Positions 19,128-47,949 of a DNA stretch of 59,618 bases are shown piece by piece. Position 1 is the first letter of the stretch. Every line of letters starts with the position of its first letter. Both the position numbers and the translations under genes were made by a program. The notes under the pieces are model-generated. The model was not told where the DNA came from. It saw nothing but the letters and a program-made list of their open reading frames with translations, and did not search any database. The stretch is from positions 1 through 59,618 of the forward strand of contig JADMIJ010000015.1 of assembly GCA_015478655.1 (NCBI GenBank), written 5' to 3'. Source of the stretch: Acidimicrobiales bacterium. Lineage in GTDB: Bacteria; Actinomycetota; Acidimicrobiia; Acidimicrobiales; RAAP-2.

Positions 19128-20045
19128 TCAGTAGCTGGCAGGCAGCAGGGGCGCCACGGCGTCGAAGAAGAAGAAGACCACCACCGACCAGCCGACCACC
19201 CCGATGGCCATCACCAGGGCGCGCCTCCCGCCCTGCGTCCTGCGAACAGCCAGCCAGAGGACCGTGGTCAGTGCCGCCACTGCCACTCCCCACAGGATCG
19301 CAGCTCCCCAATTCTTGGAGGAGGCTGACGGGGGAGTCCGGTGAGTGATCGGCGCAGGCGTCGCGGGGGTGGTTGGCGCCACGTTGGGGTGGGCGAGGGC
19401 GCTGGCCACCAGAGCCGCATGAACCACCAGCCGTTGGCTCGCGCTGAAACGCGGGTTGCACGTTGTCAAGGTCAACTGCGGGGTCGCCGTTGCCGCGACC
19501 ACGGCAACGTCGCTCGGGTCGACCACCTCGCTTCCCGTCACGGTGTACACGAAATTCCCCTGCAGGGTGGTCAGCCCGATCTGGTCACCGGGCACGAGCG
19601 CGTCAAGGTGGTAGAAGGGGGCCAGGTACGTGGTCCGGTGCCCGGCAATGGCGGCGTTGCCTGCCTGTCCGGGCAACGGGGTCCCGGGATAATGGCCGGG
19701 GCCGGCTTGAAGCCGTACCTCATCAGTGCCTTCGACCACCATCATCGAAAGTCCGATCCTCGGGATGGAGATGATCCCCACCGGACCCCCGATGGCCGGG
19801 GGGGCGATCGTCGGGGCCACCTCGGGAGCCCCGGTGGCGGCGCCCGGTTTCGGAGGCGTCGGGGGTTTGGTGGGTACCGACCCGGCCAGGTGCTGATCGA
19901 CGACGAACTGGCTGCGGAGATCGGCCTGACTGCGCGCCGTCATCAACCCGGTGCCCCACAGCAGGTAGGGAATGAACAGGAGTACCAGGATGCCGGTGAC
20001 CAGTACGACCCGCCCGATGGCCATTCGTATGGTCGTGAACGACAC
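19128..20045 (-). CDS. Class E sortase
   Basis: 305 residues with GTG start. An N-terminal transmembrane helix (residues 10-32) and a Pro-rich stalk lead to the sortase barrel. His136 in A-G-H-R-T-T-Y, Cys196 in T-L-T-T-C and Arg205 form the catalytic set, and the H-R-T-T-Y and T-T-C-N-P-R-F context is that of class E. Two extra hydrophobic helices close the C-terminus, an unusual addition for class E and more like class C. It would cleave between Thr and Gly of the sorting signal and anchor proteins such as the neighbouring LPFTG protein. Confidence 0.85.
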   Translation of the reverse strand: MSFTTIRMAIGRVVLVTGILVLLFIPYLLWGTGLMTARSQADLRSQFVVDQHLAGSVPTKPPTPPKPGAATGAPEVAPTIAPPAIGGPVGIISIPRIGLSMMVVEGTDEVRLQAGPGHYPGTPLPGQAGNAAIAGHRTTYLAPFYHLDALVPGDQIGLTTLQGNFVYTVTGSEVVDPSDVAVVAATATPQLTLTTCNPRFSASQRLVVHAALVASALAHPNVAPTTPATPAPITHRTPPSASSKNWGAAILWGVAVAALTTVLWLAVRRTQGGRRALVMAIGVVGWSVVVFFFFDAVAPLLPASY

Positions 20046-20256: not shown

Positions 20257-22011
20257 GTGAGTGAGCAAGGCGGTCAGAGACGGCGCAGGCGGCGCAGGTG
20301 GCCCATCGTTGTCGGTATCGTCGTCGTCCTGGCCCTGTGGGCTGCCATCCTCGGTGTGCGGACCCTGTCGGCCTACCGCCACGACAAGAGCGGCCTGGCT
20401 GCCTTGCAGCAGGTCAAGTCCAATCTGTCGCCCGGCCAGCTGACCTCTGCGGAGTCCGTGCGTCTGCTCGACGAGGCCCATGCCGAGTTCGCCAGCGCCC
20501 AGTCGGATTTGTCTTCGCCGCTGTTCGGCCCGATCACCATCGTGCCGGTGATCGGGCGACAGTTCAGAGCCGTCCAGGCCCTGAGCACGGCGGCGGGAAC
20601 GGTCTCACATGTCGGCTCGACCTTTCTCACGCAGGTCCATGACCAGCTCGACCAGCCTCATGGCGCCGGCCCCGAACGGGTCACCTCGCTCCGGAGGTTG
20701 GCGGCGTACTCCGCCTCGGCCGGGTCGCAGCTCGCCCGCATCGACACAGGCCCGTCACAAGCACTGGTGGGACCTTTGGCCTCCAAGCACAACGAGTTCG
20801 TGTCCCAGCTCGACGACGCCCGCAGCCGGTTGATCAAGGCGGCGGGGGTGTCGGCGGCCGTGGCCACCATCTTGCAGGGCCCTCAGACCTATGTCGTTCT
20901 GGCGTCGAACAACGCCGAGATGCGGGCCGGCTCCGGTGCCTTCCTCGATGTCGGTGTGGCAACGACGTCCGACGGCACTGTGCATCTGGGAGACCTGGGC
21001 CCCTCCGGCGACCGGACCCTTCCGGTGGGTGTGGTCAATCCCACCGGCGACCTCCTGCGCAACTGGGGATGGCTACACCCGGGTTTGGACATGCGGAACC
21101 TCGGGCTGACGCCGCAGTTCGACGTCACCGCGCCGCTCGCCGCCCGCATGTGGACGGCGCTGACGGGACAGAAGGTGGACGGGGTCCTGTCACTCGACGT
21201 GGCTGGAGTCCGACAACTGCTCACGGCCACAGGACCGGTGGATGTAAACGGACAGACCATCAGCGCCGACAACGTGGAGCAGTACCTCCTCCATGATCAG
21301 TACAACGGGCTGACCGCCGACCAGGCAGGGGCAGCCCCCCGGCAAGATGGCCTCGGAGCGTTGACCAGCGCCGTCCTCCGTCAACTGCAGGGAGAGACGA
21401 CCGACCTGCGCTCGCTCGGTTCTGCGGTGTCCGCCGCGGTCGCCGGCCGTCATCTCATGCTGTGGTCGAGCGACCCAGTCGCCCAGGCGGCCTGGGTGGT
21501 GAGCGGTGCAAGCGGAAGTCTCACGCCGAGGTCTGTGGATGTGTCGCTGATCAACCTCGGGGGGAACAAGCTCGATCAGTACATGGCGGTGCACGTTGCC
21601 GTGACCACGGCCCCCGCTGGATCGAACACCGCCGTCACCCTGACCACGCGTCTCGACAACGGCACGCCACCGGGCCAGTCGCAGTTCGTCGCCGGGCCCT
21701 TCCCCGGGGTGGGCGTCAGCTACGGGGGCTACAGCGGCCTCGTGGCTGCCAATCTGCCGGCGGCGGCCACTTCCCTCACGCTGACCGGCGCGGGCCCGCT
21801 GGCCATCAAGAGCGCCGAGGGACCCACGTGGCTGTTGGCGGCGCCGATCGTCATTCCCGCCGGTTCCACCTCGACGGTCGTAGTCCACTTCGTGATGCCC
21901 GGCAGCCATGGCTCGATGCAACTGGTCCCGTCCGCTCGGATACCAACCCAACAGTGGACCTCCAACGGCAAGACCTTCGATGACAGCGTTCCCGCCACCA
22001 TCTCGTGGTAG
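20257..22011 (+). CDS. DUF4012 domain-containing membrane-anchored protein
   Basis: 584 residues, GTG start. A basic R-R-R-R-R-R-R segment and one transmembrane helix (W-P-I-V-V-G-I-V-V-V-L-A-L-W) anchor a large extracytoplasmic part. Residues about 210-350 (Q-T-Y-V-V-L-A-S-N-N-A-E-M-R-A-G-S-G) are the DUF4012 signature, and G-V-L-S-L-D-V-A-G-V-R-Q-L-L fits the later part. DUF4012 proteins recur in actinobacterial polysaccharide loci and resemble LytR-like envelope proteins in placement, but no activity is established. It starts the glycan locus with the acyltransferase 46 bp downstream. Confidence 0.85.
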   Translation: MSEQGGQRRRRRRRWPIVVGIVVVLALWAAILGVRTLSAYRHDKSGLAALQQVKSNLSPGQLTSAESVRLLDEAHAEFASAQSDLSSPLFGPITIVPVIGRQFRAVQALSTAAGTVSHVGSTFLTQVHDQLDQPHGAGPERVTSLRRLAAYSASAGSQLARIDTGPSQALVGPLASKHNEFVSQLDDARSRLIKAAGVSAAVATILQGPQTYVVLASNNAEMRAGSGAFLDVGVATTSDGTVHLGDLGPSGDRTLPVGVVNPTGDLLRNWGWLHPGLDMRNLGLTPQFDVTAPLAARMWTALTGQKVDGVLSLDVAGVRQLLTATGPVDVNGQTISADNVEQYLLHDQYNGLTADQAGAAPRQDGLGALTSAVLRQLQGETTDLRSLGSAVSAAVAGRHLMLWSSDPVAQAAWVVSGASGSLTPRSVDVSLINLGGNKLDQYMAVHVAVTTAPAGSNTAVTLTTRLDNGTPPGQSQFVAGPFPGVGVSYGGYSGLVAANLPAAATSLTLTGAGPLAIKSAEGPTWLLAAPIVIPAGSTSTVVVHFVMPGSHGSMQLVPSARIPTQQWTSNGKTFDDSVPATISW

Positions 22012-38489: not shown

Positions 38490-39728
38490 ATGACCCGCAT
38501 AGCCCTTCTACCCAGTTCCTTCCCGCCTTCGCTCGGCGGGGTTGAGGAGCTCTCGCGGCATCTTGCCCTTTGTCTCTGCGATGCCGGGGACCAGGTCGAA
38601 GTCTGGACCGGGCAGCCTGACGATGCTGCACACGAATCCGTGGAGGTCCGCGACGGACTGGTGGTGCGCCGCCTACCCATGCCGTTGCCCGCCACCAACT
38701 GGTCCGCCATTCGCCGCTCGACCACCACGGGCATGCAGACGCTGCTCTCCCTCCGCAGCGCCGTGGCTGCCTTCCACCCCGACGTGCTCCACGTGCAGTG
38801 CTTCGGCCCCAACGGCACCTACGCCGCTGCCCTGTCCCGGCTGACCGGTATCCCACTCGTGGTCACCCTTCAAGGGGAGACGGTGATGGATGACGCTGAC
38901 ATCTTCGAGACATCGCGGGTGTTGCGGGCCTCGTTGAGGTTCGGACTCCGGACGGCCGCCGCCGTGACCGCCTGCTCGGCCTTCACCCTCGCCGATGCCG
39001 AGGATCGATTCGGACTTGGGCCGGGCCGGGGACAGGTCATCCCGAACGGGGTCGATCTGGCTGGCACCGAACACAGGGGCACCGCCCCGACGCCGGACGC
39101 AACGGCGCCTACGGTGTCGGACCGTCCCTACATCTTCGCGCTCGGACGAGTGGTGGAGAAGAAGGGATTCGATCTGCTGTTGGCTGCGTATGCCGCCATG
39201 GACGCCGTGCACCGAACGACCGATCTGGTGATTGCCGGCACCGGCGCCTCGTTGGAGGACCTCCGACAGGACGCCATTTCCCTCGGAGTGGCGCCGCACG
39301 TGCACTTCGTGGGAAAGCTCAACCGTGAGGCGGTGGCTGCGGCCATGGCCGGCGCCGAGCTCTTCGTCATGCCCAGTCGCCTCGAACCGTTCGGGATCGT
39401 CATTCTCGAGGCCTGGCGGGCCGGGGTGGCGGTGGTGGCCACCACCCACGGCGGGCCGCCCGAGTTCGTCCATGACGGACTCGATGGAGTCCTGGTCGAC
39501 CCGTTCGACACCGGAAGCTTCGCCGTCGTCCTCCAGAAGCTTCTGTCGGACGCCGACCACCGACACGCCCTCGCGGAGGCCGGCCGTCTCTCGGCGCAGG
39601 CGTTCGCCTGGCCGTCGATCGCCCGTCGCTACCAGCAGGTCTACTCGTCGGTGATTGGGACGGGGACCGGTGAGGGCGGCGTGGATGCTCCCCGTTCCCG
39701 CTCCCATCAAGGAGAATCGGTCCGATGA
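38490..39728 (+). CDS. GT4-family glycosyltransferase coupled to the carrier-protein operon
   Basis: 412 residues, ATG 38490. P-S-S-F-P-P-S-L-G-G-V-E-E-L at the N-terminus, L-Q-G-E-T, I-P-N-G-V-D-L, A-L-G-R-V-V-E-K-K-G-F-D and E-P-F-G-I-V-I-L-E-A-W-R-A-G-V-A are GT4 landmarks. Its stop overlaps the start of the phosphopantetheinyl transferase gene as ATGA, making it the first gene of a seven-gene coupled run. This placement implies that the aminoacyl-carrier-protein chemistry downstream serves glycan assembly. Sugar specificity unknown. Confidence 0.85.
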   Translation: MTRIALLPSSFPPSLGGVEELSRHLALCLCDAGDQVEVWTGQPDDAAHESVEVRDGLVVRRLPMPLPATNWSAIRRSTTTGMQTLLSLRSAVAAFHPDVLHVQCFGPNGTYAAALSRLTGIPLVVTLQGETVMDDADIFETSRVLRASLRFGLRTAAAVTACSAFTLADAEDRFGLGPGRGQVIPNGVDLAGTEHRGTAPTPDATAPTVSDRPYIFALGRVVEKKGFDLLLAAYAAMDAVHRTTDLVIAGTGASLEDLRQDAISLGVAPHVHFVGKLNREAVAAAMAGAELFVMPSRLEPFGIVILEAWRAGVAVVATTHGGPPEFVHDGLDGVLVDPFDTGSFAVVLQKLLSDADHRHALAEAGRLSAQAFAWPSIARRYQQVYSSVIGTGTGEGGVDAPRSRSHQGESVR

Positions 39729-40336
39729 TCTACGTGTCGCCAACACACGAGCTCGACGCCGGGTGGGCCATGGACGGGACGTCATCGCGGCTGTGTTCGG
39801 AGCGCGACCACGCAAGCCACGACCACCTCGGTCTCGAGCGCCGCGAGCACGAAAGTGGCGAGCTTCACCGCCGAAGCCAATCATCGTCGTTTCGCGTCGG
39901 CGTTGACCTGGTGGTGGTGGCCGACGTGGCCCGATCGGTTCGGCGGTTCGGCAACCGCTACATCGATCGAATCTTCACGCCGCATGAGATCATGTGCTGT
40001 CGGACGCCGGATCGGGCTCAGGGGCCGTCGACCGGCTATTCCGTCGAGTCATTGGCCGCCCGCTTCGCGGCCAAGGAGGCGACGGTGAAGGTATTGCGAC
40101 CCGAAGGCCCCCGACCGGATTGGCGCAGCATCGAAGTCCACCGTGACCGCGGCGGCTGGTGTGAGATCCGTCTACGGGGCCGGGCCGCCCGGTTGGCCGT
40201 CGATGCCGGCATCGCTGAGCTGGCGGTGAGCCTGACCCACGAATCGACGATGGCGGCTGCCGTCGTCGTCGGAATGTGCAGCAGTGGCGACCGGTCTGTT
40301 GGCCGACCCGCCCCGTCTGCCTGGAGAGAGGAGTGA
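39725..40336 (+). CDS. Holo-ACP synthase-type phosphopantetheinyl transferase
   Basis: 203 residues. F-R-V-G-V-D-L-V-V-V-A-D-V with Asp61 and L-A-A-R-F-A-A-K-E-A-T-V-K-V-L with Glu118 are the two magnesium-binding motifs of AcpS-type enzymes. It transfers 4'-phosphopantetheine from CoA to a carrier-protein serine, surely the carrier encoded immediately downstream. The first ~55 residues are a His/Arg/Glu-rich extension with no counterpart in AcpS (usual length ~125); no in-frame internal ATG or GTG sits near the domain, so the ATG overlapping the upstream stop is kept. A dedicated rather than housekeeping transferase is likely. Confidence 0.85.
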   Translation: MIYVSPTHELDAGWAMDGTSSRLCSERDHASHDHLGLERREHESGELHRRSQSSSFRVGVDLVVVADVARSVRRFGNRYIDRIFTPHEIMCCRTPDRAQGPSTGYSVESLAARFAAKEATVKVLRPEGPRPDWRSIEVHRDRGGWCEIRLRGRAARLAVDAGIAELAVSLTHESTMAAAVVVGMCSSGDRSVGRPAPSAWREE

Positions 40337-40338
40337 CC

Positions 40339-40578
40339 ATGGACGAGACCATCCGGGATGTCCTGACCGAGCACGGCCGATTGGCGGTGGATGCGGGCTC
40401 GATCGACGAGAGCACCGATCTGTTCGCATCGGGAATGACCTCCCACGCCAGCGTCAATGTGATGCTGGCGCTGGAGGACGCGTTCGACATCGAGTTCTCG
40501 GAGAAGATGCTGAGGAAGTCCACGTTCGAATCGATCGCCGCCATCCGGGCCGGCGTCCTCGAGATGAAGGACGCGTGA
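40339..40578 (+). CDS. Aminoacyl carrier protein (ACP-like)
   Basis: 79 residues from ATG 40339, with GGAGAGAGGAG upstream and 2 bp after the transferase stop. The acidic four-helix ACP pattern is clear; the phosphopantetheine site is Ser35 in S-G-M-T-S-H-A-S rather than the G-x-D-S-L of fatty acid ACPs. G-M-T-S-x-A-S is characteristic of carrier proteins that pair with Bll0957-type amino acid:[carrier protein] ligases, as is the following L-E-D-A-F-D-I-E-F. It would carry an amino acid as a thioester to the downstream flavoprotein or another acceptor. Confidence 0.9.
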   Translation: MDETIRDVLTEHGRLAVDAGSIDESTDLFASGMTSHASVNVMLALEDAFDIEFSEKMLRKSTFESIAAIRAGVLEMKDA

Positions 40579-40585
40579 GGACGCC

Positions 40586-41767
40586 ATGATATCGATCACC
40601 GAAGAAGCTCCAGTGGTGTCCGGTTCGAGCGACGTGGCGCGGCGGATGGCCCGCATCGCCGATGAGATCTCGGGACCGGCCGCCGACGAGGTGGACCAGC
40701 AGGGTCGATTCCCGTCGGAAACCATCAGCGCCCTGAGGGCGGAAGGCCTCCTGTCGGCCCTCGTCCCACGGTCATTGGGTGGAATGGGCGCGTCCTACTC
40801 GGACCTGTCCCAGGGGTTGGTGTCCATGGGTCGCCAGTGCGCGTCGAGCGCCATGGTGGTGGCCATGCACCACATCCAGGTGGCAAGCCTGGTGCGTCAC
40901 GGCAGGAACGACCTGCTCCGCAACTACATGGTGGAGTTGGTCGATCGCCAGTACCTGCTGGCCTCGGCCACCACCGAGGTGGGAACCGGAGGGGACGTCG
41001 GGAGCAGCGTCTGCGCCGTGGATGTGGCCGATGGCACCTTCCGCCTCGAGAAGCAGGCCCCGGTCATCTCCTACGGGCGCTTTGCCGATGGCATCCTGGC
41101 CACGGCACGCCGTTCGGCGGACAGCCCCGAGAACGACCAGGTCCTGGCGTTGTGCCGGCCTCTCGAGCTGGAGTTGGAGCAGGTGGGGGAATGGAACGCC
41201 CTCGGCTTCCGGGGCACCTGCAGCCCGGGCTTCATCCTTCGGGCCAGTGGCGACGCCGCAGCCATCCTCGACGACCCCTACGGCGACGTGTCCACCCAGA
41301 CCATGTTGCCGGTGGCCCACATCCTGTGGAGCTCCCTGTGGCTCGGAATCGCCTCGGCCGCCATCGACCGGGCCCGCCGGTTCGTACAGGCCGAAGCCCG
41401 CAAGCGACCGGGCATGACCCCGGCGGCCGCACTCCGGCTGGCCGATGCCACCGCCCTCTACCAACAGTTCGCCGACCTGTTGCGGTGCTCGGTTGCACGT
41501 TTCGAGGACATCCAGGACGACCCTGACCGTCTGTCAGCCCTGGGCTTCGCTATCGCCATGAACTCCCTCAAGGTGTCCTCCTCCACCCTGGTGGTCGACG
41601 TGGTGCGCCAGTCCATGGTCATCTGCGGCCTGGCTTCCTACCGGATGGACACCCCCTACAGCCTGGGTCGCCACCTGCGGGATTCCATCGGCGCCTCCCT
41701 CATGGTCAACAACGACCGGATCATGGGGAACAACGCGCAGATGCTCCTGGTGCACCGGGGCGAGTGA
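40586..41767 (+). CDS. Acyl-CoA-dehydrogenase-like flavoprotein of the aminoacyl carrier operon
   Basis: 393 residues, 7 bp after the carrier gene. Family landmarks include F-P-S-E-T-I-S-A-L-R-A-E-G-L-L, A-T-T-E-V-G-T-G-G-D-V-G, G-F-R-G-T-C-S-P-G-F, and a C-terminal four-helix half ending Y-S-L-G-R-H-L-R-D-S-I-G-A-S. The C-terminal position often occupied by the catalytic Glu of acyl-CoA dehydrogenases is not obvious. Its neighbours suggest the substrate is an aminoacyl-S-carrier protein rather than acyl-CoA, as for the prolyl-carrier-protein oxidases of pyrrole pathways, or that it handles a derived intermediate. That substrate assignment is inference. Confidence 0.8.
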   Translation: MISITEEAPVVSGSSDVARRMARIADEISGPAADEVDQQGRFPSETISALRAEGLLSALVPRSLGGMGASYSDLSQGLVSMGRQCASSAMVVAMHHIQVASLVRHGRNDLLRNYMVELVDRQYLLASATTEVGTGGDVGSSVCAVDVADGTFRLEKQAPVISYGRFADGILATARRSADSPENDQVLALCRPLELELEQVGEWNALGFRGTCSPGFILRASGDAAAILDDPYGDVSTQTMLPVAHILWSSLWLGIASAAIDRARRFVQAEARKRPGMTPAAALRLADATALYQQFADLLRCSVARFEDIQDDPDRLSALGFAIAMNSLKVSSSTLVVDVVRQSMVICGLASYRMDTPYSLGRHLRDSIGASLMVNNDRIMGNNAQMLLVHRGE

Positions 41768-41778
41768 GGGAGGACCAG

Positions 41779-42732
41779 ATGACGGACAGAAGCACGGCCA
41801 CGGTGGATCAGGGTTCGAACGGCGTACCCGAGGACCCGTGGACCCCGTTCCGGGACCAACTGCTGGCTGAGGGACTCCTCGTCCCGACCGGCGTCGACGG
41901 ACTCTACGGCCGGTCCGGCACCTACGAGTCGGTGGCGGACGCCATGGACCGGCTGGTGCTGCGAGTCGGTGCCGACCAGGCCGCATCCTCGGTGCGCTTC
42001 CCCCCGGTCATGCCCTGGGCGACCTTCGAGCGCAACGGGTACCTCGAGTCGTTCCCGGACCAGATGGGATCGGTGCACACCTTCCGGGGAGACGAGCGCG
42101 ACCACGCCGAGCTCCTCCGCCGAACCGAGGCCGGCGAAGATCGCGGCACCCTGCTCGAGACCACCGACATGGTGCTGTGCCCCGCGGTCTGCCATCCGCT
42201 CTATCCGACCATGGGCGGCGTCCTCCCCGACGGCGGCCGACGGGTGGAGGTCTACGGATACTGCTTCCGCCACGAGCCGAGTACCGATCCGTTCCGGATG
42301 CAGGCCTTCCGCCAGCACGACTATGTCTATCTGGGCACGCCGGATGGGGCCCGGCACCACCGCGACCTGTGGCTCGAACGCGGACTCGAGGTGCTGAGCG
42401 GGCTGGGGCTGGAGGTGGCATCGGTCGTCGCCAACGACCCCTTCTTCGGCCGGCCCGGCCGGATGCTCGCCGCCAATCAGCGCAACGAGGAGTTGAAGTA
42501 CGAGATCGTCACGCCTGTCTACGCCACGCAGCGCCAGACGGCGATCTCCTCGTCGAATTGCCACCTCGACCATTTCGGGTCCCCGTTCGGGATCGAGACC
42601 CCTGACGGCGAGGTGGCCCACACCTCGTGCTTCGGCTTCGGCGTGGACCGGATCACCCTGGCCCTGCTCCACCGTCACGGTCCAGACCCCGACGGCTGGC
42701 CGGCCGGCGTCCGAACCCAGCTGTGGCCGTGA
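41779..42732 (+). CDS. Amino acid:[carrier protein] ligase (truncated class II seryl-tRNA-synthetase homologue)
   Basis: 317 residues from ATG 41779, with AGGGAGGA upstream, preferred over a GTG at 41764. Class II synthetase motif 2 is F-R-H-E-P-S and motif 3 is G-F-G-V-D-R at 286-291. Cys134 (L-C-P-A-V-C), Glu166 (R-H-E-P) and Cys261 (S-N-C-H-L-D-H-F-G) match the C/E/C zinc set of atypical SerRS and of Bll0957-type ligases. The tRNA-binding N-terminal domain is missing, as in that family. Known members activate Gly or Ala with ATP and load it on a carrier phosphopantetheine instead of tRNA. The carrier gene lies two genes upstream. Confidence 0.92.
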   Translation: MTDRSTATVDQGSNGVPEDPWTPFRDQLLAEGLLVPTGVDGLYGRSGTYESVADAMDRLVLRVGADQAASSVRFPPVMPWATFERNGYLESFPDQMGSVHTFRGDERDHAELLRRTEAGEDRGTLLETTDMVLCPAVCHPLYPTMGGVLPDGGRRVEVYGYCFRHEPSTDPFRMQAFRQHDYVYLGTPDGARHHRDLWLERGLEVLSGLGLEVASVVANDPFFGRPGRMLAANQRNEELKYEIVTPVYATQRQTAISSSNCHLDHFGSPFGIETPDGEVAHTSCFGFGVDRITLALLHRHGPDPDGWPAGVRTQLWP

Positions 42733-42751
42733 GCGGCCTGCCAGGTGTCCT

Positions 42752-43726
42752 GTGACCGCCGCTCTCCTTTCTCTCTCTGCCGACGAGTTCCGTCCCCATA
42801 GCCTCCACGCGGTCGAGCGGACCTGGACGGAGACCAACTGCTACGTCGATGTGTGGATCGAAGTGCTCCACGCCCTGGGGCTCGACCCGGTGGCCGCGGG
42901 CGCGTTCACCCTCAGCACCGATTTCGAGGGCGACCAGTGGACCTTCTTCAAGTTCCCCCCGGAGGATCTCCGCACCCTGTTCGGGCTCGAGATCTCCGAG
43001 CTGAACGTCTGGAAGCCGGTCATCGACCACGTCACCGAGCAACTCCTCCTCGGCCGACTGTGCACGGTCGAGGTCGACTCGTGGTTCCTGCCCGACACCC
43101 GCGGCGTGTCCTATGGCATCGCCCACGTCAAGAGCACCATCGTCCCCCAGATGGTCGACCGGGAAGGCCGGCGCCTCGGGTACTTCCACAACGCGGGCTA
43201 CTTCGAGCTCGACGGGGACGATTTCGACGGCGTCTTCCGACTCGGCGGCCATGCCGACCCCTCCGGCCTCCCGCCGTATGTGGAGCTGATCCGTCTCGAC
43301 CGAGTCCGCCGCCACGACCCCGATCTGGCGTCCCGCGTCGTGTCTCTCACCCGGGAGCACCTGGGTCGTCGCCCGACCGACAACCCCATCACGAGGCTGG
43401 GACGTCGGCTGGCGCTGGACATGGCGTGGCTGGTCCAACAGGATCTCGAGACGTTCCACCTCTACTCGTTCGGAACCTGCCGGCAGTGCGGGGCCACCGC
43501 AGAGCTGGCCTCTTCGTTCGTCGAGTGGCTCAACCGGAACGACCGGCCCGGCACCGAGTCAGCCGCCGCTGCCTTCAGGGATCTGGCGGCCGGCGCCAAG
43601 GCACTCCAGTTCGCCCTGGCCCGGGTGGTGCGGGGGCGCGAGGTGGATCTGGCCGCCATCCTCGCCCCCATGGAGCAGAACTGGGACGACGCCACCGCCA
43701 CGATGGTGCAGCACTATGGCGGCTGA
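42752..43726 (+). CDS. DUF1839 family protein
   Basis: 324 residues, GTG start 19 bp after the ligase gene. W-T-E-T-N-C-Y-V-D-V-W-I-E-V-L-H, F-E-G-D-Q-W-T-F-F-K-F-P and D-S-W-F-L-P-D-T are family landmarks. The N-C-Y and central D-S-W-F segments suggest a papain/BtrH-like catalytic architecture (Cys and His/Asp), possibly an acyl or aminoacyl transferase, but this is inference. DUF1839 genes recur beside aminoacyl-carrier ligases in Bradyrhizobium-type clusters, so it is the best candidate for the enzyme that removes the amino acid from the carrier. Confidence 0.8.
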   Translation: MTAALLSLSADEFRPHSLHAVERTWTETNCYVDVWIEVLHALGLDPVAAGAFTLSTDFEGDQWTFFKFPPEDLRTLFGLEISELNVWKPVIDHVTEQLLLGRLCTVEVDSWFLPDTRGVSYGIAHVKSTIVPQMVDREGRRLGYFHNAGYFELDGDDFDGVFRLGGHADPSGLPPYVELIRLDRVRRHDPDLASRVVSLTREHLGRRPTDNPITRLGRRLALDMAWLVQQDLETFHLYSFGTCRQCGATAELASSFVEWLNRNDRPGTESAAAAFRDLAAGAKALQFALARVVRGREVDLAAILAPMEQNWDDATATMVQHYGG

Positions 43727-46286
43727 CGCCGACCTGCTCGAGTCCGCCGAGTGGGAATGCGCCGCCACGGCGCCGGGTGAGGCAGACGGCCCGTGCGCCC
43801 TCGAGTCGCTGCCGCTCCGCTGGATCCGCGCCACCGTGCCGGGCACCGCGGCGGGTGCCCTCCGTGATGCGGGGATGGCCGAACGGTCGTCGGCCGAGCT
43901 GGACGGGGAGGACTGGTGGTTCCGGTGCCGGTTCCCCGCTCCCGTGGTCGCGGGAGTGACCGTCGGGAGCACCGACCGCACCAATCCGCCCGGAGCCTGG
44001 CTGCTCGAACTGGCCGGACTGGCCACCATCGCCGACGTGTGGCTCAACGGGGTCCATCTCGTGCACTCCGAGGAGATGTTCACGACGCAACGGGAGCGGA
44101 TCACCGGGCTCCGCCCCGTCAATGAGCTGGCTATCCGATTCTCGGCCCTCGAGCCCATGCTGTCCGCCCGGCGGCCACGCCCTCGATGGAAGACCGCCGG
44201 CGCCTCCAACCAGAACCTCCGCTGGTTCCGGACCACCCTCCTCGGTCGCCAACCCGGATGGGCGGTGACCCCGGCTCCGGTCGGTCCCTGGCGGCCGGTG
44301 CATCTGTTCCCGTGGTCGTCGTGCCGTGTGGTGGAGCGCCGGCTCGTTCCCCGGTGCCGATCCGGAGAGCAGGGTGGCACCTCGGGCACGTTGTCTGTCG
44401 ACCTCCTGTGCACGGCGCCCGGGCCCGATCTGGAGGGAGCCGGCGCGGAGGACCGGGGCGGCGGTCTGGAGGTGGACGAGGCGCGCCTGGAGGTCGGCGG
44501 CACCAGCGCAGTGCTGGCCGTGGAGCGAATCGGAGACCACCTCCGACTCCGCGGCTCGGCCGTCCTGGCCGCCGTCGATCGCTGGTGGCCGCACACCCAT
44601 GGGCGACAGCCCCTGTATCCGGTGACGGCAGTGGTCGGCGGCACCCGCCTCGAGTTGGGCAGCGTCGGCTTTCGCGAGGTGGAGGTCGATGAGGCCGATG
44701 GCCGCTTTGAGGTGGCGGTCAACGGCGCCCGGGTCTTCTGCCGGGGGGCGTGCTGGTATCCCATCGACCCGGTGGCATTCACCGAATCGGAGGACGAGCT
44801 GCGGGTGACCCTGACCCTGGTGCGGGACGCCGGCATGAACATGGTCAGGGTGCCCGGTGGCACCGTCTACCCCGACGGCCGGTTCTTCTCGATGTGCGAC
44901 CAGCTCGGCATCATGGTCTGGCAGGACGCCATGCTGGCGTTCCTCGACCCGCCCGACGACGACCACTTCACCCAGCTGATCACCGAGGAGCTGACCGAGG
45001 TCCTCTCGGAGGCGGCCGCCCATCCCTCCCTCAGCGTCGTCTGCGGCGGACAGGAGCTTGAGGAGCAACCCGCCATGTTCGGGCTGTCGCGGTCGAAGTG
45101 GCAGTCGCCGTTGACGGCCACGGTCATCCCGGCCCTGGCGGACCGACTGGCACCCGGGGTGCCCTACCTGACCTCGTCTCCGTCGGGCGGTGCCCTTCCC
45201 TTCCAGGTCGACCACGGGGTGAGCCACTACACCGGCGTGGGCGTGTTCATGCGCCCCCTCACCGACCTGCGCCAGGCAGCTCCGCGGTTCGTCAGTGAGG
45301 GCTTGGCCTTCTCCGTCCCCCCGGACTCCGACACCGTGGTCGACCGGTGTGGTGGGGCCCGCCAGGCTGGGCACGACCCGTCGTGGAAGCGGGCCATCCA
45401 CCACGACACCGGCGGGTCGTGGGACCTCGAGGATGTGCGCGACCACTACGTCGGCGTCCTCTTCGGGGAGGACCCGGCGCTCCTCCGACGACATGAGCCT
45501 GAGCGGGCCCTCGACCTCGGTCGGGCCGCGGTCGCCCACGTGATGGCGGAGGCCATGGCCGAGTGGCGTCGACCGGGGTCGCCGTGCGCCGGTCTGCTGC
45601 TCGTGGGTCTCCGCGACCTCCGTCTGGGTGCCGGTTGGGGGGTGGTCGACGCCCTCGGACGACCCAAGGCGCCGTGGTTCACGTTGGCCCGGGCTTCGCG
45701 GCCGATAACGGTGCTGGTCACCGACGAGGGGTTGAACGGGCTCGGAATCCACCTGGTCAATGACACCGGCACCGCGGTTGCCGGCGCCCTGGACGTCGAG
45801 CTGTATTCCGCCGACCACCGGGTCGAGGAGGCGACCGCGACGGTCGAGATCCCCGCCCGGGGCGGCGTCGAATTGGCTGCGTACTCCCTGTTCGACGGGT
45901 TCCGGGACCTGACCTACGCCTATCGCTTCGGACCCCGCAGCTACGAGTTGGTGATGGTCCGGCTCAGGGCAGGGGACGGGACCGTCCTGGCCGGGACGAG
46001 CTTTCTCCCTGGTGGCCCGGCCCGCACCCGAGTTCCCGAGATTGGCCTTCAGACCAGCCTCCGACCGGTCGATGATCAGGCATGGTCCCTGTCCATCTCG
46101 ACCCGGAGTTTCGCCCAGTTCGTGTGCGTGGACGTGCCCGGATTCCGGTCCGAAGACTCCTGGTTCCACCTGGAGCCCGGCGGGTCGGTGGTGACCATCC
46201 TCCACTCGGAGTGCTCCGGCGGCCCCGCGCCGAGAGGTCAGGTCCGGGCACTGAACGCCGCCCAGGCCGCCAGCGTCTCTCCCTAG
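43716..46286 (+). CDS. GH2-type (beta-mannosidase-like) protein, cytoplasmic
   Basis: 856 residues, overlapping DUF1839 by 11 nt. A GH2 architecture is visible: jelly-roll sugar-binding region with D-V-W-L-N-G-V-H-L, then beta-sandwich, then barrel beginning F-C-R-G-A-C-W-Y-P-I-D. Probable acid/base Glu447 in C-G-G-Q-E-L-E-E-Q (usual G-N-E, here Gln-Glu) and nucleophile Glu528 in R-F-V-S-E-G-L-A-F. No signal peptide, so it would act inside the cell. Coupling to the aminoacyl-carrier genes suggests it processes or binds a cytoplasmic glycan intermediate; a transferase or inactive role is possible. Confidence 0.8.
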   Translation: MAADADLLESAEWECAATAPGEADGPCALESLPLRWIRATVPGTAAGALRDAGMAERSSAELDGEDWWFRCRFPAPVVAGVTVGSTDRTNPPGAWLLELAGLATIADVWLNGVHLVHSEEMFTTQRERITGLRPVNELAIRFSALEPMLSARRPRPRWKTAGASNQNLRWFRTTLLGRQPGWAVTPAPVGPWRPVHLFPWSSCRVVERRLVPRCRSGEQGGTSGTLSVDLLCTAPGPDLEGAGAEDRGGGLEVDEARLEVGGTSAVLAVERIGDHLRLRGSAVLAAVDRWWPHTHGRQPLYPVTAVVGGTRLELGSVGFREVEVDEADGRFEVAVNGARVFCRGACWYPIDPVAFTESEDELRVTLTLVRDAGMNMVRVPGGTVYPDGRFFSMCDQLGIMVWQDAMLAFLDPPDDDHFTQLITEELTEVLSEAAAHPSLSVVCGGQELEEQPAMFGLSRSKWQSPLTATVIPALADRLAPGVPYLTSSPSGGALPFQVDHGVSHYTGVGVFMRPLTDLRQAAPRFVSEGLAFSVPPDSDTVVDRCGGARQAGHDPSWKRAIHHDTGGSWDLEDVRDHYVGVLFGEDPALLRRHEPERALDLGRAAVAHVMAEAMAEWRRPGSPCAGLLLVGLRDLRLGAGWGVVDALGRPKAPWFTLARASRPITVLVTDEGLNGLGIHLVNDTGTAVAGALDVELYSADHRVEEATATVEIPARGGVELAAYSLFDGFRDLTYAYRFGPRSYELVMVRLRAGDGTVLAGTSFLPGGPARTRVPEIGLQTSLRPVDDQAWSLSISTRSFAQFVCVDVPGFRSEDSWFHLEPGGSVVTILHSECSGGPAPRGQVRALNAAQAASVSP

Positions 46287-46446
46287 CGTCGGGTTCGCCC
46301 GCCGGGAGCGGTCGCCGTTGTGCCGGACAATGCTGCGGGCTTAGCATGAGAAGCGCCGGTGGAAGTGATTCTGGTGGTTGACCCTTCGAGAGGCACACAG
46401 GAGGGCCGGCCGGCAGGCAGCACAAAGAAGGGGCAGGCCGGCAGGC

Positions 46447-47949
46447 ATGGCGATTCTTGACTCAGAGGTTCAAGAGGTCCGGCGTGAGTCGGCACCGTCG
46501 GTGCCGCGGCGCGACCGGCGTGTGGCGCTGGATGAGCATGCCGGAGCGGTAGCCCGGGTTCGCCGGCACACACTCCGCCGGCTGCTTTTCGCCGATTTCG
46601 CAGGATTCGCCCTGGCCGCCCTCATCGGTCCGTTGACCATCGCGGTCTTCTCCAACAACCCGGACAGCGTCGCCGGGCGAAATGGGACCGTCTATCTCTT
46701 CGATGTGGCCATGATCCCGTTGTTCATGGCCGTGTTCGCGTTCTACGGCCTCTACCGGGGGACGACCAGGCGCATCTCGATGAGTGTCTTCTCCGACCTG
46801 CGGAACATTGTGCACGCCCTGATGATCAGCGGGTTCCTGTACGCCATCGTGGCCTACGCCGCCAGTAAGAACTACAACGTCGAAACGCTCAGCGTGGCCA
46901 AGATCGTCTCCATGTGCGTCGTGGCGGCCATCACTGTTCCCCTGGCCCGGGTGGTGTCCTTCGGGCTGTTGGGCCAGCAGTCGGTGGGCTCGGTTCCGGT
47001 CATCGTGGTCGGGACCGGAAAGCTCGCCCAGACCGTGGCCAGCCATCTCCGGGCCCACTCCCGCGTCAGCTTCGTGGGATTCGTCGACGACAACCCACTC
47101 GGCCGCAGTGACGTGCTCGGCGAGCTCGAGGACCTCCCCATGTTGTGTCGGAAGTTCCACGTGGCGAGGGTGGTGGTCTGCTTCTCCCGCACCCATCCGG
47201 AACGGACCACCGAGATGCTCAAGGGGCTGGCGGGCCAGGTGGGCGTGTCCATCGTCCCCCGCTACTACGAGCTCATCACCGGCCGTTCCCATGTGGAGGA
47301 CCTGTCCGGGCTGCCCATGCTGGATATCGCTCCGGCGTCGCTGAGCGCCGGTGCCCGGTTCCTCAAGCGATCGTTCGACATCGTGGTGTCATCGGTGGTC
47401 CTCCTGCTGGCCTCACCCGCGTTCGTGGTGGTGGCGGTACTGATCAAAGCCACCAGCGCCGGTCCGACGTTCTTCCGCCAGGAGCGGACCGGACGCGACG
47501 AGCAGACCTTCTCCATGATGAAGTTCCGCACCATGGTCCACGACGCCGAATCCCGGCGCCACGAGCTCGATCATCTCAACGAGGTCGACGGGCCACTGTT
47601 CAAGGTGGTGAACGACCCCCGGGTCACCCGGGTGGGTCGCGTCCTGCGGAAGACCAGTCTCGATGAGTTCCCCCAGCTCATCAACGTATGGAAGGGCGAC
47701 ATGTCGCTGGTCGGTCCGCGGCCGTTCGTCGTCTCCGAGGCCATGAAGATCGAGGGATGGGCCCGCAAACGTTTCGAGGCCCGACCCGGAATGACCGGCC
47801 TGTGGCAGGTCTCAGGCCGCAACGAGCTCTCGCACCTCGAGCTGTGCCGGCTGGACTACCTCTACGTGGCCTCGTGGTCGTTCTGGTGGGACATGCAGAT
47901 CCTCTGGCAGACCCCGGCCACCATCTTCCGGGGACGCGGGGCTTCGTGA
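46447..47949 (+). CDS. Polyprenyl-phosphate sugar-1-phosphate transferase (exopolysaccharide initiating enzyme)
   Basis: 500 residues from ATG 46447. About four N-terminal transmembrane helices, a CoA-binding-like Rossmann segment ([13 protein letters not shown], then F-V-G-F-V-D-D), one more helix, and a WbaP/PssY-type catalytic domain: [39 protein letters not shown] and [13 protein letters not shown]. It starts repeat-unit synthesis by moving a sugar-1-phosphate to undecaprenyl phosphate. A TAGCAT at about 46341 may be its -10; the leader contains a duplicated GGCCGGCAGGC. Confidence 0.92.

What the first reader, a model, noticed from the sequence alone, without database searches (positions are those of the whole stretch)
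38490..46286. Aminoacyl-carrier-protein module embedded in an exopolysaccharide locus
Seven coupled genes (gaps of 19 bp or less, or overlaps): GT4, AcpS-type transferase, carrier with G-M-T-S-H-A-S site, acyl-CoA-dehydrogenase-like flavoprotein, amino acid:[carrier protein] ligase with the C134/E166/C261 zinc set, DUF1839, and a GH2-like protein without signal peptide. The ligase family is established (class II SerRS homologues that load Gly or Ala on a carrier), but its end product is not. The attached glycosyltransferase (ATGA overlap) and surrounding glycan genes suggest an amino-acid-derived decoration of a sugar, possibly oxidised by the flavoprotein and transferred by DUF1839. This functional chain is inference.
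Basis: partly seen in the sequence, partly recalled or inferred. Interest (0 to 1): 0.85.

Follow-up and report, generated by a model that had tools for sequence, protein, structure and literature searches.

The report
Amino acid-to-sugar transfer gene module
A set of neighbouring genes, found from soil actinobacteria to rhizobia, that probably loads a small amino acid onto a carrier protein and joins it to an amino sugar; the joining enzyme looks in shape like one from antibiotic making, which makes a fifteen-year-old guess about these genes testable.

Summary
The seven genes are real and coupled. One detail fails: the ligase's metal site is C143/D186/C289, with Asp where most relatives have Glu. 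The ligase is a confirmed amino acid:[carrier protein] ligase (relative of Bll0957).

Across 93 non-redundant ligase loci in seven phyla the recurrent block is carrier–ACAD-like flavoprotein–ligase–DUF1839–GH2, in this order in 50 of 74 loci with full flanks; a tandem alpha/beta-hydrolase is near in 49. Polysaccharide genes lie within 6 kb in 35 of 74 (controls 2 of 20), in 10 of 12 in Acidimicrobiia: the glycan link is real but not general. In sampled genomes DUF1839 occurred only with the ligase (5 of 5 unselected).

A 2010 note (PMC2922099) already predicted amide ligation to a surface sugar. The fold match, the DUF1839–ligase dependence and the Cys-nucleophile hydrolase partner are the additions. 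Acceptor and product remain unknown.

The parts
38490..39728 (+). GT4 glycosyltransferase; first gene of the block in this genus, not a constant part elsewhere
   Evidence: PF00534 E 1.3e-37; 63-69% identical homologue next to AcpS in L026, L027, L029, L030, L031, L032, L037; GT4 near the ligase in 22 of 74 loci
39725..40336 (+). AcpS-type 4'-phosphopantetheinyl transferase (domain from residue 57; start uncertain)
   Evidence: PF01648 E 1.6e-12; AcpS near the ligase in 26 of 74 loci
40339..40578 (+). carrier protein, phosphopantetheine serine S56 of the 100-aa frame (G-M-T-S-H-A-S)
   Evidence: PF00550, NF005480 from the ATG at 40339; serine 89 of 89
40586..41767 (+). acyl-CoA-dehydrogenase-fold flavoprotein without the usual catalytic glutamate
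   Evidence: PF02771 3e-12, PF00441 4e-6; V374 stands at the glutamate of the YEG motif and A244/H245 at the isovaleryl-CoA dehydrogenase position (positions partly recalled); near the ligase in 66 of 74 loci
41764..42732 (+). amino acid:[carrier protein] ligase (SerRS-like class II core), metal site C143/D186/C289
   Evidence: 3e-75 to 4h2w/3mey; NF005479 415 bits; residues
42752..43726 (+). DUF1839: papain-fold, CcbD-like; proposed carrier-dependent aminoacyl amide synthase
43716..46286 (+). GH2 beta-mannosidase-like protein, no signal peptide seen, both catalytic glutamates present
   Evidence: PF22666; 5n6u 9e-87 over profile positions 28-797 of 814; E528 67 of 67, E447 63 of 67
46378..47949 (+). 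polyprenyl-phosphate sugar transferase (Bac_transf) following the block; context, not core
   Evidence: PF02397 E 7e-65; a homologue follows in L026-L032 and L037, and none was found within 9 kb in the other Acidimicrobiia loci

Best explanation
The block is a carrier-protein pathway that loads Gly or Ala and joins it by an amide bond to an amine, most likely the free amino group of an amino sugar. Steps: (1) AcpS or a housekeeping enzyme puts phosphopantetheine on the carrier serine (inferred from family). (2) The SerRS-like ligase adenylates the amino acid and loads the carrier (shown for relatives in the literature, not for this protein). (3) The ACAD-fold flavoprotein modifies the aminoacyl thioester or the amino sugar; lacking the usual glutamate it is unlikely to be an ordinary alpha,beta-dehydrogenase (inferred). 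(4) DUF1839 takes the aminoacyl group onto Cys30 and hands it to the amine, as CcbD does with prolyl-carrier and the thiooctose amino sugar (inferred from fold, invariant Cys and co-occurrence with the ligase). (5) The GH2-like enzyme acts on the product or its precursor in the cytoplasm, as hydrolase or transglycosidase (inferred). In Acidimicrobiia the product probably feeds exopolysaccharide assembly (inferred from neighbours).
Against: No detectable sequence similarity of DUF1839 to CcbD, AziU3 or CtaG; fold shows no function by itself. PMC10318531 describes a C(T/S)H arrangement in DUF1839, not the Cys-His-Glu of CcbD. 39 of 74 loci have no polysaccharide gene detected nearby. No amino-sugar aminotransferase (PF01041) or PIG-L deacetylase was found in the window; both occur elsewhere in the genome. 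Eight of the 13 unselected ligase genomes lack DUF1839 (two of the eight, G128 and G204, are weak ligase matches), so loading has other uses. GH2 is missing in two same-genus loci (L027, L031).
Confidence: 0.6

Rival explanations
1. The product is a small soluble glycoside or antibiotic-like aminoacyl amino sugar (in the manner of lincosamides or mycothiol), not a decorated polysaccharide; the exopolysaccharide neighbourhood in Acidimicrobiia is secondary.
For: No polysaccharide gene was detected near the ligase in 39 of 74 loci. In the flanks of ten diverse loci (98 of 119 ORFs scanned) no GT1/GT2/GT4 model is among the 25 families listed of 154. No signal peptide is seen on the GH2. CcbD itself makes a small molecule.
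Against: Polysaccharide genes still exceed controls outside Acidimicrobiia (25 of 62 against 2 of 20, p 0.009). The same flank census does list Polysacc_synt_2 (2), Polysacc_synt_3 (1) and Bac_transf (1), and one flank gene (L113) is a GT2. Wzx flippase genes stand directly beside the short blocks L056, L064, L072.
Confidence: 0.35
2. DUF1839 moves the aminoacyl group to a hydroxyl (ester), as in D-alanylation, rather than to an amine.
For: Papain-fold enzymes can make esters (recalled); the second possible transferase, the tandem hydrolase with a G-x-C-x-G elbow (Cys 56 of 57), resembles the lipase box of PHA synthases that make esters (recalled).
Against: The three closest structures are amide-forming or belong to amide-forming pathways (CcbD; CtaG and AziU3 recalled).
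Confidence: 0.15
3. The flavoprotein acts on the amino sugar, as nitrososugar synthases of the same fold do, and not on the aminoacyl carrier.
For: Profile matches to DnmZ (1.3e-22), to 3m9v/4kcf (about 4e-21; that these are KijD3-type is recalled) and to nitrososynthase 3mxl (1.5e-17); no catalytic glutamate.
Against: Acyl-CoA dehydrogenases score slightly better (2e-25); no flavin reductase is in the window block; in L063 another ACAD accompanies an amino acid adenylation domain, which favours a carrier-bound substrate; carrier-bound substrates are named for the distant matches RedW, PigA and MbtN.
Confidence: 0.25
4. DUF1839 is a protease or a cell-wall glycan-processing enzyme, and the block is only a loose neighbourhood.
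For: PMC10318531 (passages) classes it with papain-like proteinases and suggests glycan processing at the cell wall from genomic context.
Confidence: 0.05

Closest known systems
aa:CP ligase gene cluster of Agrobacterium/Bradyrhizobium (Bll0957, Atu2573; Mocibob 2010/2013, not held here; neighbourhood note in PMC2922099)
   Same: Same ligase family, carrier, redox gene, conserved uncharacterised ORF and glycosidase; same proposal of amide ligation to a surface sugar. The Agrobacterium locus L112 has the order CP-ACAD-LIG-DUF1839-GH2, so Atu2574 is very probably DUF1839 (inferred).
   Different: Here in Acidimicrobiia with its own AcpS, GT4 and polyprenyl-phosphate sugar transferase; Asp replaces the zinc-site Glu.
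Lincosamide synthetase (CcbC/LmbC adenylation, CcbZ/LmbN carrier, CcbD/LmbD)
   Same: Carrier-bound amino acid, separate loading enzyme, separate condensing enzyme with the same overall fold as DUF1839.
   Different: The loader is a SerRS-like ligase instead of an NRPS adenylation domain; no sequence similarity found; reported active-site arrangement differs; flavoprotein and GH2 added; acceptor unknown.
CtaG (closthioamide) and AziU3/U2 (azinomycin)
   Different: Natural product clusters; other acyl groups and acceptors (recalled); 11-16% identity.
Exosortase-A-associated exopolysaccharide hydrolases 1 and 2 (TIGR03100/TIGR03101) with ligase_PEP_1 (TIGR03098)
   Same: The tandem hydrolase partner (49 of 74 loci) is a fused relative; in L063 an adenylation-domain ligase, an ACAD and two such hydrolases sit beside the block.
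   Different: Scores are below the curated cut-offs; the fused form has no nucleophile in the first domain and Cys in the second; no exosortase was looked for.
Butirosin acyltransferase BtrH (PF14399)
   Same: Papain-like fold; acyl carrier to aminoglycoside transfer (PMC10318531 passages).
   Different: Not compared directly here; different Pfam family.

Membership tests
amino acid:[carrier protein] ligase (NF005479) | score over the curated cut-off and full-length similarity to Bll0957 | tested here: met
   415 bits against 357; 3e-75 to 4h2w
amino acid:[carrier protein] ligase (NF005479) | conserved motif arginines and Cys/Glu/Cys metal site, no tRNA-binding domain | tested here: met
   R169, R178, R296 92 of 92; C143 and C289 92 of 92; middle ligand Asp here, Glu in 85 of 92; 322 aa, only the catalytic core matched
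amino acid:[carrier protein] ligase (NF005479) | loads Gly or Ala on the carrier | not testable with these tools
   needs biochemistry
DUF1839 (PF08893) | score over the gathering cut-off | tested here: met
   389.9 bits against 22.5
CcbD/LmbD-type carrier-dependent amide synthase | same fold over the whole chain | tested here: met
CcbD/LmbD-type carrier-dependent amide synthase | sequence homology | tested here: inconclusive
   profile A6 finds no CcbD, AziU3 or CtaG chain at E up to 10; 11-16% identity in structural alignment
CcbD/LmbD-type carrier-dependent amide synthase | Cys-His-Glu triad | tested here: inconclusive
   Cys30 and His146 75 of 75, Thr/Ser129 75 of 75, His125 69 of 75; no model coordinates could be inspected; PMC10318531 gives C(T/S)H
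CcbD/LmbD-type carrier-dependent amide synthase | carrier-dependent amide formation with an amino sugar | not testable with these tools
   needs biochemistry
acyl-CoA dehydrogenase | Pfam domains | tested here: met
   PF02771, PF00441 over cut-off
acyl-CoA dehydrogenase | catalytic glutamate at one of the two usual positions | tested here: not met
   position 374 is V/I/A in 82 of 82 filled rows, position 244 is S/A/T/P/F in 83 of 83 (two of the 83 rows are paralogues from L063 and L110); the two usual positions are partly recalled
GH2 beta-mannosidase-like glycosidase | both catalytic glutamates | tested here: met
   E528 67 of 67, E447 63 of 67; Gln in 3 same-genus loci and Asp in 1
GH2 beta-mannosidase-like glycosidase | Asn before the acid/base | tested here: not met
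   Ser 54, Gln 9, Thr 2, Asn 2 of 67; meaning of this position recalled

The most novel reading that the evidence does not exclude
A cross-phylum bacterial pathway, hitherto without a product, makes N-aminoacylated (possibly N-oxidised) amino sugars: a SerRS-like enzyme loads the carrier, DUF1839 is a lincosamide-synthetase-type condensing enzyme that lost sequence similarity, the GH2-like protein with a changed acid/base neighbour handles the resulting 2-acylamino glycoside, and a tandem hydrolase with a dead first half and a Cys nucleophile in the second is an alternative or second acyltransferase.
Probability: 0.4. Interest if true: 0.8.

Novelty: new variant of a known kind. Interest (0 to 1): 0.62.

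Why it matters
The aa:CP ligases have had solved structures and a known reaction since 2010 to 2013 (dates from citations and recall) but no known product; [quoted passage not shown] If DUF1839 is a CcbD-type amide synthase, the missing step has a name and a simple assay, and the pathway joins translation-derived synthetases to amino-sugar chemistry in rhizobia, methylobacteria, azospirilla, rhodococci and Acidimicrobiia. It would also give a large new supply of carrier-dependent amide synthases.

Tried and rejected
Universal link to glycosyltransferases: rejected. GT4 near the ligase in 22 of 74, any polysaccharide gene in 35 of 74. Detection used home-made profiles seeded from the window or from other loci; the GT2, Wzz and Wzy profiles are weak, so 35 is probably a lower bound. 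Controls are 20 stretches of 20 kb at places I picked in only four Actinomycetota genomes; the 2 of 20 is for their central 13 kb, and the alternative count is 5 of 40 half-overlapping 13-kb windows. The tandem hydrolase occurs in 1 of these 20 (L140).

Of 101 loci examined 8 were duplicates, leaving 93; 19 of these were set aside from the rates because an end of the stretch lay within 5 kb. L042, L043 and L044 show a ligase match without a block; they stay in the 74. Gene order is judged only among the families searched for; other ORFs between them are not excluded (L076 has one between DUF1839 and GH2), and no carrier was found in L113. The two co-occurrence samples used different ligase thresholds (1e-20 and 1e-40).

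A local acceptor pathway: no DegT aminotransferase or PIG-L deacetylase found in the window. Ordinary acyl-CoA dehydrogenation: set aside for lack of the glutamate. Sequence search for CcbD-like chains with the DUF1839 profile: none. Viral structure library: no match at E 0.001 or less. BtrH was my first guess for the transferase; it does not appear among the 50 entries shown and was not compared directly. Ligase tree: absence of a nearby DUF1839 needs 9 changes, so it was lost, gained or moved repeatedly; several branches are long and some joins doubtful.

Not obtained: a structure model of the flavoprotein (alignment A7) and a Foldseek table of the PDB; the machine was busy throughout. Mocibob 2010 is not held and is known here through other papers and recall.
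Full report
WHAT IS THERE. The window is one contig of a draft genome (4.47 Mb in 347 contigs) whose nearest named relatives are Acidimicrobiales/Acidimicrobiaceae. At 38490-46286 seven genes run in one direction with gaps of -11 to +19 bp: GT4, AcpS-type transferase, carrier, ACAD-fold flavoprotein, aa:CP ligase, DUF1839 and a GH2 protein. A polyprenyl-phosphate sugar transferase follows after 91 bp. Around them lie further glycosyltransferases, a Wzz/kinase gene and a Wzy/ligase gene, so the exopolysaccharide setting is right for this genome: 7 of its 37 PF13692 matches lie in this window, which is 1.3% of the assembly.

LIGASE DETAIL. The ligase is a clear family member. Asp can bind zinc, so this does not argue against activity.

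NEIGHBOURHOODS. I collected 93 non-redundant ligase loci (including the window) from Actinomycetota, Pseudomonadota, Planctomycetota, Acidobacteriota, Chloroflexota, Myxococcota and Abditibacteriota. In the 74 with at least 5 kb on both sides, within 6 kb of the ligase: carrier 70, ACAD 66, GH2 60, DUF1839 58, tandem alpha/beta-hydrolase 49, AcpS 26, GT4 22, polyprenyl-phosphate sugar transferase 7. The order CP-ACAD-LIG-DUF1839-GH2, judged among the searched families, occurs in 50 of 74, and in 29 of these the tandem hydrolase follows. Any polysaccharide gene: 35 of 74 against 2 of 20 controls (p 0.0017); without Acidimicrobiia 25 of 62 (p 0.009). So the core recurs and the GT4 is local: it is 63-69% identical in six same-genus loci and L037, other GT4s stand in L025 and L033, and none was found in L035 or L036. 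Within the genus the block is patchy (DUF1839 in 7 of 13 other genomes).

CO-OCCURRENCE. In 396 Actinomycetota genomes the ligase occurs in 8 (E up to 1e-20) and DUF1839 in 3, all among the 8. In 289 genomes of the class of an Agrobacterium (L112) the ligase occurs in 7 (E up to 1e-40) and DUF1839 in 4, all among the 7 and adjacent to it. Leaving out the window genome and the chosen centre: 683 genomes, ligase 13, DUF1839 5, both 5, p 1e-9. Four of four Rhodococcus genomes checked that lack DUF1839 near the ligase carry it elsewhere; two Actinomycetota (L038, L040) have the ligase and no DUF1839 at all. DUF1839 therefore appears to need the ligase; the ligase does not need DUF1839.

OTHER PARTS. 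The GH2 profile aligns over nearly its full length with beta-mannosidases. The nucleophile Glu528 is invariant and the acid/base Glu447 nearly so, but the preceding residue, Asn in those enzymes, is mostly Ser or Gln. From memory, that Asn contacts the 2-position of the sugar and exo-beta-glucosaminidases also depart there; this is only a lead towards a 2-amino sugar. The flavoprotein lacks acidic residues at both usual catalytic positions and matches nitrososynthases almost as well as dehydrogenases. The tandem hydrolase was not found near the block in the window's genus but is present once elsewhere in this genome, between two glycosyltransferase genes. It has Arg or Gly in place of the first nucleophile (57 of 57) and Cys in the second elbow (56 of 57), and is related to exosortase-A-system hydrolases 1 and 2. 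In a shorter type (L056, L064, L072) it stands with only AcpS, carrier and ligase next to a Wzx flippase gene. In L063 an amino acid adenylation-domain gene, an ACAD and two such hydrolases lie beside the block, a parallel system with another loader.

WHAT IS KNOWN. [quoted passage not shown] In L112 the gene after the Agrobacterium ligase is DUF1839, so that ORF is very probably the same. New here, as far as can tell, is the CcbD-type fold of DUF1839; I also saw no mention of its dependence on the ligase, of the flavoprotein's missing glutamate or of the Cys-nucleophile tandem hydrolase in the passages read, but did not search the literature for those. The Bradyrhizobium genes bll0957 and bll0958 are listed with 3.0-fold changes in a phaR mutant (PMC10888616, table passage), so they are expressed there.

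VERDICT. A conserved aminoacyl-carrier pathway with a probable amide synthase acting on an amino sugar. Shown here: genes, order, co-occurrence, predicted fold, residues. Inferred: substrate, acceptor, order of steps, product and its fate.

Noticed in passing
L063:1419-6358: Adenylation-domain ligase (DltA/TIGR03098-like), ACAD and two exosortase-type hydrolases lie next to the ligase block: a parallel loading system.
   Followed up: partly
L146:12244-14043 (G000:C232:20375-22027): The only tandem alpha/beta-hydrolase relative found in this genome (E up to 1e-5) lies between a GT2 and a GT4 gene on another contig.
   Followed up: partly
L064:389-2902, L072:6695-9334, L056:6335-9307: Wzx-type flippase fused to, or next to, a GGDEF domain directly upstream of a short AcpS-carrier-ligase-hydrolase block.
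   Followed up: partly
L026, L028, L029 GH2 genes: Acid/base Glu of the GH2 replaced by Gln in three same-genus loci while the nucleophile stays.
   Followed up: no
L111:6166-7977: A lysine 2,3-aminomutase-like radical SAM gene sits directly before the AcpS of a Myxococcales block.
   Followed up: no
L077, L110: Metagenome bins titled Klebsiella pneumoniae with 72% and 65% GC; the names look wrong.
   Followed up: no
window 19128-20045 and 20257-22011: A sortase gene and a DUF4012 gene near the left part of the polysaccharide locus.
   Followed up: no
L041: One genome stretch holds two ligase copies, a full block and a short AcpS-carrier-ligase set.
   Followed up: no
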